Positions 11,057 to 22,298 of a stretch of DNA of 64,000 bases are shown one piece after another. The first letter of the stretch is position 1. Each line of letters opens with the position of its first letter. The position numbers and the translations under genes are program-made. The stretch lies in assembly GCA_015062115.1 (NCBI GenBank), contig SUVG01000002.1, forward strand, positions 124,001 through 188,000, in the 5' to 3' direction. Source of the DNA: Elusimicrobium sp. (GTDB lineage: Bacteria > Elusimicrobiota > Elusimicrobia > Elusimicrobiales > Elusimicrobiaceae). The notes under the pieces are model-generated. The model was not told the origin of the DNA. It ran no database searches and saw nothing but the letters and a program-made list of their open reading frames with translations.

Positions 11057-11846
11057 CGGTTTCGCTTGCTTTGCGTTTGGCCGCCGTAATACCGCGTTTG
11101 GTGGCTTTGCAGAAGTCAATCATATGTTGAACTTCGGCGCACGGGTTGGTGGCTTCCAATTCCGCAATGGCTTCTTGTAAGGTTTTATTGGTTCTAAATA
11201 GTGCTTTGTACGCGCGGCGGATAGCCATAATGGTTTCGCGGGCAAGGCCGGCGCGGCGTAAACCCACTACATTGAGGCCGATTAACTTGGCGCGGCCGCC
11301 TTGGGCAATACAGTAGGGGGGAATATCCAACGGGGCCATGGTGCCACCGGAAATCATGGCCATGGTGCCGATGCGGGAGAATTGGTGCACGCCCACCATG
11401 CCGGAAATAACGGCACGGTCTTCAATAATTACATGCCCGGCAATACCGGTGCTGTTGGCGATAATGATGTTGTTGCCCAATTGGCAGTCGTGTGCGATGT
11501 GCGAGTTGGCCATCAAAAGGCAGTTGTTGCCGATTGTGGTGGGTACATCTACAAAAGTGGAGCGGTGAATCGTTACGCATTCGCGGATTTGGTTGCCGTT
11601 GCCCATCACTACGCGGGTGGGTTCGTCGCGGTAGGACAAATCTTGCGGTTTTACGCCGATAAACGAACTGGCAATTAAGTGGTTGTTATCGCCCATAGTG
11701 GTGTTTTCAATGACGCAGAACGGGCCGATTTTATTGTTTTTGCCGATTTGTACATCGGCCCCGATAACCGTGTAAGGGCCTACTTCGGTAGAGGGGTCAA
11801 TTTTAGCAGAAGGATCGATGATAGCGGTAGGGTGAATTTTAGTCAT
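11043..11846 (-). CDS. lpxA: UDP-N-acetylglucosamine acyltransferase
   Basis: LpxA transfers a 3-hydroxyacyl chain from ACP to the 3-OH of UDP-GlcNAc, the first committed step of lipid A synthesis in the cytoplasm. The 267-residue protein is a left-handed beta-helix built from hexapeptide repeats (IDPSAKIDPSTEVGPYTVIG and onward) followed by a helical C-terminal domain (about 195-265). The catalytic-histidine region is visible as IAGHVIIEDRAVISGMVGVHQF. Its start overlaps fabZ by 8 bases and its end overlaps lpxI, so the three are coupled. Length is typical of LpxA. Confidence 0.96.
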   Translation of the reverse strand: MTKIHPTAIIDPSAKIDPSTEVGPYTVIGADVQIGKNNKIGPFCVIENTTMGDNNHLIASSFIGVKPQDLSYRDEPTRVVMGNGNQIRECVTIHRSTFVDVPTTIGNNCLLMANSHIAHDCQLGNNIIIANSTGIAGHVIIEDRAVISGMVGVHQFSRIGTMAMISGGTMAPLDIPPYCIAQGGRAKLIGLNVVGLRRAGLARETIMAIRRAYKALFRTNKTLQEAIAELEATNPCAEVQHMIDFCKATKRGITAAKRKASETDDEE

Positions 11847-12327
11847 GGTTACGGGCTCCTAAGATAAAGTTTAGAGTGGCCTGCGCACACAGTTTTCCGT
11901 TTACATAGGCCTCGGCATAGATTTTAGAGATTTTACCTAAACGCAAAACCTCAATGGGCATTTCAAGCAAATCCCCGGGGCGTACAATTCCGCGGAATTT
12001 GGCGTCGTCGATGCTTAAGAAAAGCGGCAAACTGTTTTCGTCCGCCACTACATGCATCAAGGCTCCGCCAAAGGCTTGCGACATGCTTTCAACTACTAAA
12101 ACTCCGGGCATTACAGGGCTGCCGGGAAAGTGCCCTTGAAAGTAATACTCCTCGCCGTTTACATGGCGAATACCCAGGTATTTTTTACCGGATTCCAACA
12201 CGCGCACTTCATCAATCAGCAGGAACGGCTCGCGGTGGGGAATATTTCTTTTAATTTCTTCTTGATTGTACGTTTCCAAAACGGGAAGCGTCAAAAAATC
12301 TTTCAAACTGCTTGCTTTTGCGCTCAT
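11839..12327 (-). CDS. fabZ: 3-hydroxyacyl-ACP dehydratase FabZ
   Basis: FabZ dehydrates 3-hydroxyacyl-ACP in fatty acid elongation and competes with LpxA and LpxD for the same substrate, which explains its place among the lpx genes. The 162-residue hot-dog-fold protein has the signature IPHREPFLLID, the active-site histidine in GHFPGSPVMPG (His66) and the catalytic glutamate about 14 residues later (VVESMSQ, Glu80). It overlaps lpxC by 4 bases at its start. In Bacteroidetes lpxC and fabZ are fused; here they are separate but coupled. Confidence 0.96.
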   Translation of the reverse strand: MSAKASSLKDFLTLPVLETYNQEEIKRNIPHREPFLLIDEVRVLESGKKYLGIRHVNGEEYYFQGHFPGSPVMPGVLVVESMSQAFGGALMHVVADENSLPLFLSIDDAKFRGIVRPGDLLEMPIEVLRLGKISKIYAEAYVNGKLCAQATLNFILGARNHD

Positions 12328-18817: not shown

Positions 18818-18890
18818 AGCCGAGGATGGGAGTCGAACCCACAACCTACGGTTTACAAAACCGTTGCTCTGCCAGTTGAGCTACCTCGGC
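18818..18890 (-). tRNA. tRNA-Thr (anticodon TGT)
   Basis: The minus strand folds into a standard cloverleaf: acceptor stem GCCGAGG/CCTCGGC (7 bp), D stem GCTC/GAGC, anticodon stem ACGGT/ACCGT with loop TTTGTAA (anticodon TGT, reading ACA), and a T arm with GGTTCGACTCC. The 3' CCA is not encoded. A run of T follows directly and may serve in termination. Confidence 0.95.
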
Positions 18891-18953: not shown

Positions 18954-18971
18954 ACAAGAATAGGAGGAATT

Positions 18972-20663
18972 ATGAAAAAAATCTCTCTTTTCTTTCTTAT
19001 TTTTATGTTAATGGCTTTACCGGGGGCAGCCACTTTATGTGATATTTCTGCCGAGGAGCCGATCCGCCTTATGGAGGCGGAAATGAAACGCGGTTTTAAG
19101 ACCTATAAAAAGCAAAAGCCGTCCATTTATTATTTATCCTACTCCTACCACGAACTTCTGTTGCGTAATTTGTGGGTGTATGCGGGAGGCGTAGCAAGCA
19201 AAAGCGAACAAGAAAGGCACGCCCTCAGTGTGCTTGCCCGAGCCGGAAGCACTAAAATGGATAATTCCCGCTACTTAAAAGGAGAAGCGAAAAAGGAGTA
19301 TGTGGCGTTTGCAAATATGCCCTTTGGGGAAAAGCCTTTTTCCATCGTTTTGTGGGGGGCTACGGAACGTGCAATCAAGTCGGCGCAAGAGGGCCTGAGT
19401 CAGGTTCAAAGTAATAATCAGGTGGCTTCCAAACGGGCTGACGATTCTCCTGATTTTGTCATGCCTCCCGTTTCTGTTTATTGCAGAAATGAAGAATATA
19501 CCCCCATAGATATGCAAAAAATAGAGGATTTGTTAAAAGAAGCCTCTTTGGCTGTCCTCGGGAACAAAATAGTACTGGGTTCTTCTTTTGTTTTTTCTCA
19601 AAAACAAGGACATACATACTTCCTTGATTCCAACGGAACCAAGTTAAAAACTCCCGTCAATTTGGGCCGTATTTCCTACGAAGTGTGGGGGAAAAAAGCG
19701 GACGGAGCCTATATTGAAAGGGGCAATTCCTACGATATCATTTCTCCCGAAAGTGTTCCGTCCCTTGAAACTTTAGTGGCAGATGTAAAAAAATCGTTGG
19801 CGGAACTGGAGGCCCTGTTTCACGCTCCGGATGCCGAACCTCTTACGGCTCCGGCTATTTTGAAAAACAAGGCTATGGGTGTTTTCGTGCACGAAATTTT
19901 GGGGCACCGTGTGGAAGGACACCGCCAGAAAATAGACTCTTTCGGCAAAACTTTTACCGATAAGTTGGGGCAACAAATTATGCCTTCGTTTTTAAGCATT
20001 GTGGACGACCCCACCATGGCTTATTTTAAGAATATCCCGTTGCGCGGTTTTTATGAGTACGATGACGAAGGCGTAAAGGCGCAACCCGTTACGATTGTTG
20101 AAAACGGTGTGCTTAAAAACTTTTTGATGAACGCCAGCCCGATTAAGGGTTTCCCGGTTTCTAACGGCCACGGCAGAGCTTCTCTCGGAAATAGCCCGGT
20201 GGCTCGCATGGGGGTAACCCGTCTTGTGTCTTCTCAAAGTGTTTCGTATGAAGAACTGGAAAAAATGTTGATTGAAGAAATCAAAAAACAAGGCAAGCCG
20301 TATGGTTTTATTATTGAAGATTTATCCGGCGGATTTACCCAAACCGATTCTTTTGCTCCGCAAACATTTAAGTTGGAACCGACTTTAGTTTACCGTGTTT
20401 ATCCGGACGGTAAAAAAGAATTTGTCCGCGGGGCAGATTTAGTAGGTACGCCGCTGGTAAGTTTCAGCAAAATATTAGCCACTGCCGATGACGACGATGT
20501 CTTTAACGGAAATTGCGGGGCAGAGTCCGGTTGGGTGCCGGTGTCTGCCATTGCCCCCAGTGTGCTATTGGAGTCCATAGAGGTGGAAAAAACGGCGAAA
20601 AGCAGCAGCAAGCCTCCGCAACTGCCGTCCCCGTTTTCGCTGCCTGAAAGGGGGAACAAATGA
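18972..20663 (+). CDS. Exported TldD-like metalloprotease, catalytic member
   Basis: TldD proteins, with their partner TldE/PmbA, are zinc proteases that trim modified peptides such as microcins. This 563-residue protein has the TldD zinc motif HEILGHRVEGHRQ (HExxxH with His307, Glu308 and His312). The cysteine that acts as third ligand in TldD is probably Cys515 in NGNCGAESG. Unlike known TldD, which is cytoplasmic, it begins with a clear signal peptide (MKK, hydrophobic to about residue 20, GAA end), so it should act outside the cytoplasm. I chose the ATG at 18972 because of its strong Shine-Dalgarno; a longer reading would run back through the tRNA. Its stop overlaps the start of the next gene by 4 bases. 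Confidence 0.85.
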   Translation: MKKISLFFLIFMLMALPGAATLCDISAEEPIRLMEAEMKRGFKTYKKQKPSIYYLSYSYHELLLRNLWVYAGGVASKSEQERHALSVLARAGSTKMDNSRYLKGEAKKEYVAFANMPFGEKPFSIVLWGATERAIKSAQEGLSQVQSNNQVASKRADDSPDFVMPPVSVYCRNEEYTPIDMQKIEDLLKEASLAVLGNKIVLGSSFVFSQKQGHTYFLDSNGTKLKTPVNLGRISYEVWGKKADGAYIERGNSYDIISPESVPSLETLVADVKKSLAELEALFHAPDAEPLTAPAILKNKAMGVFVHEILGHRVEGHRQKIDSFGKTFTDKLGQQIMPSFLSIVDDPTMAYFKNIPLRGFYEYDDEGVKAQPVTIVENGVLKNFLMNASPIKGFPVSNGHGRASLGNSPVARMGVTRLVSSQSVSYEELEKMLIEEIKKQGKPYGFIIEDLSGGFTQTDSFAPQTFKLEPTLVYRVYPDGKKEFVRGADLVGTPLVSFSKILATADDDDVFNGNCGAESGWVPVSAIAPSVLLESIEVEKTAKSSSKPPQLPSPFSLPERGNK

Positions 20664-22225
20664 AGAAAATTCTTTTTATTTTGATTAGTCTTGTAAACAT
20701 TTCCGCTTTAGAGGCGGTTGCTTTGCCGGACAATGTGTATTTTCGTGCCATGAAGGACGAAATGGATCGTACCATGAAGGAATACCGGATAGAAAAAGGC
20801 CCGGAACTTTTTTACATGGCATATAATCTAAAACTTTACCAAAGAGTAAAAGCGGGGGGCCTTTTCGGGAAGAGAGTCTCTTTTAATCAAAGTGAAGAAT
20901 TGCAAGTCGCGGCCCAGTCTAATGTGGGAAGTTACAAAAATGATTCCCTGGGGTTTTTCTCGGACGATAGTATGTACGGGGAGGTATTTCCTTCTCCGCG
21001 AAACTATGAGGGGATTCGGCAGAATTTGTGGCGTGTGTCGGATAGCGAAATTCTTAAACAACAGAAGAATTATGAGGAAAAACAAGCATACAAAAAGCAA
21101 AAACAGATTAAACAGGATAACTTTTATGATTTTGCTCCCGTGAAATCGAGTTCTTACGTGGAGGAACTAAAAGAATTTACGCCTCCTTCTCGAGCGTACT
21201 TGGAAAACCTGGTGGAAAAACTGTCTGCCCGAGGAAAAGACTATTCGTTTATAGAACATTTTGAAGCCTCTGTTTTGGTTTCCAACACCACTCATTTTTT
21301 CTTAAATTCAGAGGGCAGTTTCAGTCAATACAGCACCCCGGAAGTTATGATAGTGTTTCTAGGGAAAGTCCGCCATGAAAAAGGATATGTGTTTCAGCGC
21401 CAAGAAAGAATCTCTTTTTCCGCTTTAACACCGGAACGCGAACCTTTATTAGAACAAAAAGCCGATGAATTTTTACAAAAATTATTGGTTTTTCATAAAG
21501 CTCCTATGGCGGATGCTTATATCGGCCCCGTATTATTTAAGCCGGCGGTTGCGGGTTCTCTGATTGCATCGGGGCTGGATTTGTCAAACATTACTCCCTT
21601 TTTTAACAGTCAGCACGACACAGACCCTTCGGCCAGCCCGTTGCGTGATAAAGTAGGTATGCGGATTATGTCTCCCGGAATCAATGTTTATGACCGCCCG
21701 CTTTTGCGGGAATATAAGGGGAAGCCGGCAATCTTTTCCCCGATGGACGATGAGGGAGTTTTGGCACAAGAGTTATTATTGGTTAGTAAAGGAAAGTTAA
21801 AAAATCTGCCGCTTTCCCGTCGTTCCGGTAAAAGAGGAAAAAGCAACGGACATGGTTTTGGGTTTTTGCGTCAGCCGCGCGAAGATACTACTACCCTGGT
21901 TATAGAGCCGGAAAATCCTCTTTCCCAGAAAGAATTGGAAGAGAAATTATTGACGCTTTGCCGCGAACAGGAACAGGAATACTGCTATATTGCCCATGAC
22001 GGTAGCTTTTTTGAGCGCATTGATATGAAATCCGGCGCGCGGGAGTTTGTTTTAGGGCTAAATATGAAATATTCAGCCACGCGGGCGTTACGGGATATTT
22101 TGGCTGCGGGTGATGATTTTGACTTAAAAAACGGAAGCGTCGTTCCTTCCTTGCTGGTAGATGAAGTGGAACTGGAGCCTAAAGAGATGATTCCCGAACG
22201 GAAACCGCTTATCCCTCGCCCTTAA
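20660..22225 (+). CDS. Exported TldD-like protein lacking the zinc motif (TldE/PmbA-like role)
   Basis: This 521-residue protein has a signal peptide (MKKILFILISLV to about residue 22) and shares landmarks with the protein before it: the SPMDDEGV / YDDEGV turn, the NGHG motif followed by an arginine-containing loop (FGFLRQPRE), and the C-terminal run RDILAAGDDF. At the place where its neighbour has the HExxxH helix it reads KPAVAGSLIASGLD, so it cannot bind zinc in the same way. A Lys/Gln-rich segment (about 135-155) is an insertion. A coupled catalytic and non-catalytic TldD-like pair mirrors the TldD-TldE heterodimer of other bacteria, but here both are exported. Substrate unknown. Confidence 0.75.
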   Translation: MKKILFILISLVNISALEAVALPDNVYFRAMKDEMDRTMKEYRIEKGPELFYMAYNLKLYQRVKAGGLFGKRVSFNQSEELQVAAQSNVGSYKNDSLGFFSDDSMYGEVFPSPRNYEGIRQNLWRVSDSEILKQQKNYEEKQAYKKQKQIKQDNFYDFAPVKSSSYVEELKEFTPPSRAYLENLVEKLSARGKDYSFIEHFEASVLVSNTTHFFLNSEGSFSQYSTPEVMIVFLGKVRHEKGYVFQRQERISFSALTPEREPLLEQKADEFLQKLLVFHKAPMADAYIGPVLFKPAVAGSLIASGLDLSNITPFFNSQHDTDPSASPLRDKVGMRIMSPGINVYDRPLLREYKGKPAIFSPMDDEGVLAQELLLVSKGKLKNLPLSRRSGKRGKSNGHGFGFLRQPREDTTTLVIEPENPLSQKELEEKLLTLCREQEQEYCYIAHDGSFFERIDMKSGAREFVLGLNMKYSATRALRDILAAGDDFDLKNGSVVPSLLVDEVELEPKEMIPERKPLIPRP

Positions 22226-22241
22226 TAAGGCTTATATTTAC

Positions 22242-22279
22242 AACCCCCCCGCGAGAGGTTTTCTCCTGCGGGGGGTTTT
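22242..22279. terminator. Bidirectional terminator
   Basis: A stem of CCCCCCGC with GCGGGGGG, flanked by AA/TT and closed by a GAGAGG-to-TCTCC inner pairing, is followed by TTTT on the plus strand. It lies between the converging TldD-like pair and the six-gene minus-strand operon and can serve both. Confidence 0.85.
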
Positions 22280-22298
22280 ATGTGGCGTAAAAATGTTG

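What the first reader, a model, noticed from the sequence alone, without database searches (positions are those of the whole stretch)
18972..22225. Exported pair of TldD-like proteins, one active and one without the zinc motif
TldD and TldE are known as cytoplasmic partners. Here two coupled TldD-like proteins both carry signal peptides; the first has HEILGH and the matching cysteine, the second has lost the motif. This looks like a periplasmic or secreted version of the TldD-TldE machine with unknown substrates.
Basis: partly seen in the sequence, partly recalled or inferred. Interest (0 to 1): 0.6.

Follow-up and report, generated by a model that had tools for sequence, protein, structure and literature searches.

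The report
Exported TldD-like protease with inactive partner
This gut bacterium carries two neighbouring genes for an exported version of a known intracellular peptide-cutting machine, one working half and one dead half, and the dead half seems to have evolved separately from the dead half of the classic machine.

Summary
ORF A (18972-20663) and ORF B (20660-22225) overlap by 4 bp. Both start with Sec-type signal peptides. A has HEILGH plus the distal Cys; B has neither. AlphaFold models of both have the complete TldD/TldE fold (A vs E. coli TldD Z 38.4; B vs PmbA Z about 25).

The pair is not a local oddity. A is in 87 of 90 genomes of the family. A scan of species genomes returned 80 loci in at least 13 named phyla: in 76 B follows A on the same strand, one is a natural A-B fusion with a single signal peptide, one has B about 9.5 kb away, two end too early. 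Hydrophobic signal segments occur in nearly all A and B and in none of 52 canonical TldD/TldE checked. All 90 family genomes lack the canonical TldD N-terminal domain, so here the exported pair stands alone.

A and B are sister clades, and the topology (A with TldD, B with TldE) is rejected (AU p 0.022 catalytic domain; 1.7e-53 full length).

Best reading: an extracytoplasmic hollow heterodimeric metallopeptidase trimming unfolded peptides. Activity, substrate and heterodimer are inferred. New variant of a known kind.

The parts
18972..20663 (+). ORF A: exported TldD-like metallopeptidase subunit (563 aa)
18972..19031 (+). signal peptide of A (residues 1-20, cleavage after GAA by eye)
   Evidence: sequence; conserved in orthologs
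18962..18967 (+). Shine-Dalgarno AGGAGG, 4 nt before the ATG of A
   Evidence: sequence
19890..19907 (+). HEILGH (H307, E308, H312), inferred metal site
   Evidence: invariant in the 44-row alignment; motif present in 80 of 80 A loci
20514..20516 (+). Cys515, inferred third metal ligand (matches TldD Cys454)
   Evidence: C in 118 of 119 scored rows, the other a gap
20660..22225 (+). ORF B: exported non-catalytic TldD-like partner (521 aa)
20660..20722 (+). signal peptide of B (residues 1-21, cleavage after AVA by eye)
   Evidence: sequence; conserved
20660..20663 (+). ATGA start/stop overlap of A and B (translational coupling inferred)
22244..22281 (+). terminator-like hairpin and T run after B
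   Evidence: by eye; a shorter stem listed (7 found, 5.2 expected in shuffles, so weak)
19038..19040 (+). Cys23, co-varies with Cys171 in Elusimicrobiaceae
19482..19484 (+). Cys171, co-varies with Cys23

Best explanation
A and B are secreted through the Sec route and assemble outside the cytoplasm into a hollow TldD/E-like heterodimeric metallopeptidase. A binds the metal (His307, His312, Cys515; Glu308 as base) and cuts; B is a pseudo-subunit that closes the shell and stabilises A. As in E. coli TldD/E, unfolded chains would be threaded in and trimmed from the N terminus into short peptides, so the likely job is clearing or recycling unfolded peptides and protein ends in the periplasm, by size gating and without ATP. 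Shown here: the genes, their overlap, conserved signal-peptide-like N-termini, conserved catalytic residues, predicted folds, sister relationship of A and B, a natural A-B fusion. Inferred: localisation, heterodimer, metal, activity, substrate class.
For: Folds: A pLDDT 92.2, best structural match E. coli TldD 5nj5_A Z 38.4, rmsd 3.6, 453 aligned, against 26.9-31.0 for TldE/PmbA-type chains; B pLDDT 92.3, PmbA/TldE 23.7-25.6 and TldD 23.5-23.8, nearly tied. Catalytic residues: 80 of 80 A of the wide set have the motif; B lacks it at the aligned place in 30 of 30. Export: 74 of 78 A and 75 of 75 B against 0 of 52 canonical proteins. Partnership: A then B, same strand, gap -4 to 102 bp in 37 of 37 fetched pairs; 76 of 80 wide loci with B downstream; L165 a 1121-aa A-B fusion with one N-terminal signal peptide and none before the B half, seen again as one 1124-aa open frame in that genome. 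Mechanism by analogy: PMC5810440, passages read.
Against: No activity, localisation or interaction data. B's model is nearly equally close to TldD and TldE chains. TldD's Asp272-Lys456 tether is replaced (His317 and Ala517 in the window protein), so active-site details differ. No complex could be modelled. Many loci are MAGs; in L191 A and B lie about 9.5 kb apart. PMC5810440 cites a report of an active TldD homodimer, so a partner may not be strictly required in all TldD.
Confidence: 0.7

Rival explanations
1. A works alone as an exported homodimeric peptidase and B is an exported homodimeric binding or chaperone-like protein with its own role; the genes are only co-expressed.
For: TldE/PmbA proteins crystallise as homodimers, and an active TldD homodimer has been reported (both as told in PMC5810440).
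Against: A-B fusion L165, near-obligate adjacency, A and B trees of similar branching.
Confidence: 0.14
2. A is not a general peptidase but an amide hydrolase of another kind, for example an N-deacetylase acting on a cell-envelope glycan or lipid.
For: The TldD/TldE family is said to include N-deacetylases (title of Vobruba 2022, seen only in a reference list). LptF-LptG permease gene after B in 8 of 11 Acidobacteriota loci; a polysaccharide deacetylase gene shared by 4 loci, directly after B in L175.
Against: These neighbours are lineage-specific; no third gene is conserved across phyla. The metal site matches the peptidase TldD.
Confidence: 0.08
3. Ordinary TldD and TldE whose hydrophobic N-termini are misread: the real starts lie downstream and the proteins are cytoplasmic.
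For: Later in-frame ATG codons exist near residues 34 and 38 of A.
Against: A hydrophobic segment after a start codon is conserved across at least 13 phyla in both proteins and absent from canonical members; strong ribosome sites at the upstream start; B does not group with TldE.
Confidence: 0.03
4. The pair is exported TldD plus exported TldE (one ancient duplication, both later exported). This concerns descent and is compatible with the best explanation's mechanism.
For: Same division of labour as TldD/TldE; expA is only weakly supported (57) as one side in the catalytic-domain tree.
Against: expA+expB form one side with support 100 in the catalytic-domain tree; AU rejection p 0.022, lnL 63 lower; full length p 1.7e-53, lnL 152 lower; N-domains A-B 6.9e-60.
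Confidence: 0.2

Closest known systems
TldD/TldE (PmbA) heterodimeric metalloprotease, E. coli (MEROPS M103; PDB 5nj5)
   Same: Full fold of both subunits, HExxxH plus distal Cys in one subunit only, HEx2GHxxE core, probably a closed two-subunit shell
   Different: Signal peptides on both; no PF01523-detectable N-domain; Asp272/Lys456 pair not kept in the window A (His317, Ala517); Pro-rich C-terminal tails; partner B is sister of A, not TldE; genes adjacent and overlapping
Second TldD group of the neighbouring family f2 (HESVGH..ELD with NCGKGQ; rows labelled TldD_asp)
   Same: TldD family, HExxxH and Cys (aligned)
   Different: No hydrophobic N-terminal segment; groups with canonical TldD/TldE
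Peptidase U62 MXAN_2519 in the outer-membrane-vesicle-enriched proteome of Myxococcus xanthus (PMC4158809)
   Same: A TldD-family (U62) protein found outside the cytoplasm
   Different: Its sequence could not be fetched here, so whether it belongs to this exported clade is untested
TldD in the exoproteome of Leptospira interrogans (PMC5881292)
   Same: TldD-family protein seen in culture supernatant
   Different: 49.9 kDa, listed beside ClpP, HslU and Map, so lysis or non-classical release is likely; no signal peptide mentioned in the passages read

Membership tests
TldD/TldE superfamily (PF19289, MEROPS M103) | PmbA/TldD C-terminal domain | tested here: met
   A 1.8e-28, B 6.3e-19, both above cut-off
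TldD/TldE superfamily (PF19289, MEROPS M103) | overall two-domain TldD/TldE fold | tested here: met
   predicted models: A Z 38.4 to 5nj5_A over 453 residues; B Z 25.6 to 3qtd_B over 410
TldD/TldE superfamily (PF19289, MEROPS M103) | HExxxH plus distal Cys metal ligand in the catalytic subunit | tested here: met
   metal itself not tested
Canonical TldD (NF008006, NF040952) | reaches the curated family cut-off | tested here: not met
   A: 61.5 bits against 513 and 100.2 against 635
Canonical TldD/TldE | PF01523 N-terminal domain | tested here: not met
   no match in A or B or in the genome; by sequence only, the fold is there
Canonical TldD/TldE | cytoplasmic, no signal peptide | tested here: not met
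   (by sequence only)
Canonical TldE/PmbA (for B) | B groups with TldE in a tree | tested here: not met
Canonical TldD/TldE | active only as a heterodimer | not testable with these tools
   no complex prediction or assay; the L165 fusion is indirect support
Lipoproteins | lipobox Cys at +1 | tested here: not met
   Cys23 of A follows Leu and is absent in 13 of 57 scored Elusimicrobiaceae rows; consensus recalled

The most novel reading that the evidence does not exclude
The 'one live, one dead' TldD-type peptide-trimming chamber evolved twice: once as cytoplasmic TldD/TldE and once, independently, as an exported pair spread over many phyla, giving bacteria an ATP-free, gated peptidase chamber outside the cytoplasm; in Elusimicrobiaceae it is the only such machine left.
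Probability: 0.5. Interest if true: 0.68.

Novelty: new variant of a known kind. Interest (0 to 1): 0.52.

Why it matters
TldD/TldE is common in prokaryotes yet its ordinary role is unsettled. A sister system that works outside the cell membrane, has no fixed gene partners beside it and stands alone in a whole bacterial family offers a clean place to find what such chambers do. If the inactive partner arose twice, a catalytic/pseudo-catalytic pairing is something this fold favours, which is a testable statement about how gated peptidases are built. The natural fusion L165 is a ready single-chain construct for structure and assay.

Tried and rejected
Neighbour genes as clues to substrate: clustering of ORFs from 81 stretches (80 loci and the window) gave only genus-level synteny (TerC, TPR lipoprotein, patatin, OEP, BamA- and lpx-like genes, the last two named by reading) and lineage-specific neighbours (LptF-LptG, xanthine-dehydrogenase-like by reading, histidine kinase); no third gene is shared across phyla. 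HExxxH in four B proteins (HEEPxH) looked like surviving motifs but lies in a C-terminal 'HEEPxH' stretch, not at the site. The plasmid collection search with A gave 37 records, all under 60% identity and mostly the catalytic half of ordinary TldD. Cys23-Cys171 as disulfide evidence is weakened because DsbA (PF01323) and DsbB (PF02600) models find nothing in the genome; other oxidation routes were not tested. A first Cys count by regular expression was wrong because signal-peptide Cys were counted; replace it. Row L223_2 in the first tree was cut from a long merged frame and is a false long branch; it was dropped from then on, and L180, L196 and the L165 halves were not taken into. The label TldD_asp is a misnomer: my pattern missed their Cys (NCGKGQ). 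All trees are 'quick' trees without bootstrap, with long-branch warnings. Literature: ten searches (terms TldD, TldE, PmbA, peptidase U62, TldD-related, with signal peptide, periplasm, secreted, exoproteome, outer membrane vesicles, Elusimicrobi; and Elusimicrobium minutum with peptidase) showed in their listings no paper that describes this exported pair; the library lacks most subscription journals, and the Vobruba 2022 review is not held.

Full report
The thing itself. The window carries two overlapping plus-strand genes, A at 18972-20663 and B at 20660-22225. Upstream lie a tRNA-Thr gene on the minus strand at 18818-18890 and a TerC gene, also minus; downstream a terminator-like hairpin and minus-strand TPR, patatin and OEP genes. 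So A-B is a two-gene unit of its own. A matches the PmbA/TldD C-terminal domain at 1.8e-28 and only weakly the central domain; B matches the C-terminal domain at 6.3e-19. Neither matches PF01523, the usual N-terminal domain, and neither reaches an NCBIfam TldD cut-off.

Motifs. A has H307-E308-I-L-G-H312 and Cys515. The phmmer alignment puts them on E. coli TldD's HExxxH and its distal Cys, which are metal ligands in the crystal structure (PMC5810440, passages read). In 44 aligned A proteins H307, E308, H312 and C515 are invariant; all 80 A of the wide set carry the motif. In E. coli TldD the helix is tethered by Lys456 to Glu270 and Asp272. In A the Glu is kept (E315), but Asp272 is replaced by His317 and Lys456 by Ala517 in the window protein and most relatives: both partners of that salt bridge are gone together. 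B has nothing at these places.

Export. Both proteins begin with Lys-Lys, a hydrophobic run and a small-x-small site. With one measure (best mean Kyte-Doolittle value of 11 residues in the first 45, cut 1.9, my own cut), 74 of 78 A and 75 of 75 B of the wide set pass; 2 of the 80 A and 2 of the 77 B had no start found and were left out. The four A that fail score 1.73-1.89. No canonical protein passes: 0 of 23 TldD and 0 of 30, 29 of them TldE-type, the highest being 1.64. With another rule that also asks for a start codon and a cleavage-like site, 75 of 80 A and 75 of 77 B pass; two of the A misses are cut by contig ends.

Distribution. PF19289 occurs in 240 of 340 genomes of the phylum searched, PF01523 in 144 of 340. 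In the window's own family A is found in 87 of 90 genomes (50 of 51 of the good ones), while none of the 90 is among the PF01523 matches. The window genome itself has exactly two PF19289 matches, A and B; it is 95.64% complete. The neighbouring family f2 (59 genomes) has both kinds: 57 with PF01523, 56 with a match to B. So the exported pair does not need the cytoplasmic one. In one sample of 99 genomes drawn around an Acidobacteriota genome, 13 have an A-type match below 1e-100, two of them known beforehand; the other 43 genomes with matches score far lower, as canonical TldD would. Of 22 chosen genomes outside Elusimicrobiota with the pair, 16 also have PF01523 and 6 do not.

Pairing. In 37 of 37 fetched pairs of the two Elusimicrobiota families, B follows A on the same strand with a gap of -4 to 102 bp (nine starts set by hand; G080, split over two contigs, not counted). 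Of the 80 wide loci, 76 have B downstream on the same strand (in L177 after a gap of several hundred bases, in L161 broken by Ns), one (L165) is a fusion, in L191 B begins about 9.5 kb downstream with other genes between, and in L169 and L204 the contig ends too soon. L165 encodes one 1121-aa chain: one signal peptide, A, a short linker, then the B half without a second signal peptide. Because the second signal is missing, a sequencing frameshift does not explain it. This is the best evidence that A and B act together in one compartment.

Folds. AlphaFold models made from window and genome-scan proteins are confident: A 92.2, B 92.3 mean pLDDT. Foldseek's first 16 hits for A are all TldD/TldE structures, and nothing else passes 0.001. 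VIA-align gives A against E. coli TldD Z 38.4 over 453 residues, TldE-type chains 26.9-31.0. B gives 23.7-25.6 with PmbA/TldE chains and 23.5-23.8 with TldD, close to a tie. So the full fold is there although the N-domain has drifted beyond PF01523.

Origin of the dead partner. The full-length tree puts A (22 rows) and B (22 rows) each on one side of a branch and together apart from canonical TldD and TldE, apart from one mis-cut row. That could reflect the shared N-domain, so I repeated it with the catalytic domain alone, where A and TldD share the metal site and should attract each other: A+B is still one side with support 100, and the tree that joins A with TldD and B with TldE is rejected, p 0.022, log-likelihood 63 lower. 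On full length p is 1.7e-53, 152 lower. Profile comparison of N-domains: A-B 6.9e-60, TldD-TldE 8.5e-25, A-TldD only 85 columns at 1.3e-4. Limits: quick trees, no bootstrap, long-branch warnings, canonical rows only from this phylum plus one E. coli TldD. After these cautions I take a separate origin of B as somewhat more likely than not.

How it most likely works. By analogy with TldD/E, where a hollow heterodimer lets unfolded peptides reach the metal site and trims them from the N terminus without sequence preference (PMC5810440, passages; review PMC10885120, passages), the exported pair should trim unfolded peptides outside the cytoplasm. No gene stands fixed beside it across phyla, so housekeeping peptide clearance or scavenging fits better than maturation of one product. 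In 8 of 11 Acidobacteriota loci an LptF-LptG gene follows B, and the window unit sits near BamA-, OmpH- and LpxD-like genes (named by reading); that is a hint towards the envelope, no more.

Known or new. The ten literature searches listed no paper on this pair. Two leads exist: a 'Peptidase U62' (MXAN_2519) in the vesicle-enriched proteome of Myxococcus xanthus (PMC4158809, one passage) and TldD in a Leptospira exoproteome (PMC5881292, passages). Neither sequence was compared here. I file the pair inside the TldD/TldE superfamily (fold, domain and metal motif tested and met), but not as canonical TldD/TldE, since PF01523, the cut-offs, location and partner orthology were tested and not met.

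Noticed in passing
L165:9977-13342: Natural A-B fusion (1121 aa) in a Candidatus Eisenbacteria MAG with a single signal peptide.
   Followed up: yes
window Cys23 (19038-19040) and Cys171 (19482-19484): The two Cys co-vary: 43 unique Elusimicrobiaceae rows have both, 13 neither, 1 only the first; 62 rows outside have neither (5 rows with a gap not scored). Suggests a lineage-specific disulfide, but DsbA and DsbB models find nothing in the genome.
   Followed up: partly
L189, L196, L198, L200, L202, L203, L205, L206, downstream of B: A fused LptF-LptG permease gene follows B in 8 of 11 Acidobacteriota loci.
   Followed up: partly
L226-L233, L130 (family f2): A second TldD group with HESVGH..ELD and NCGKGQ, clearly apart from the usual TldD.
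   Followed up: no
L191:148-1878 and 11341-11877: A and B separated by about 9.5 kb of other genes, the only split pair seen among 80 loci.
   Followed up: no
C-termini of A and B, window about 20612-20660 and 22180-22222: In relatives both end in conserved Pro-rich tails (PPVLPPP and KPYLPHP types) whose role is unknown.
   Followed up: no
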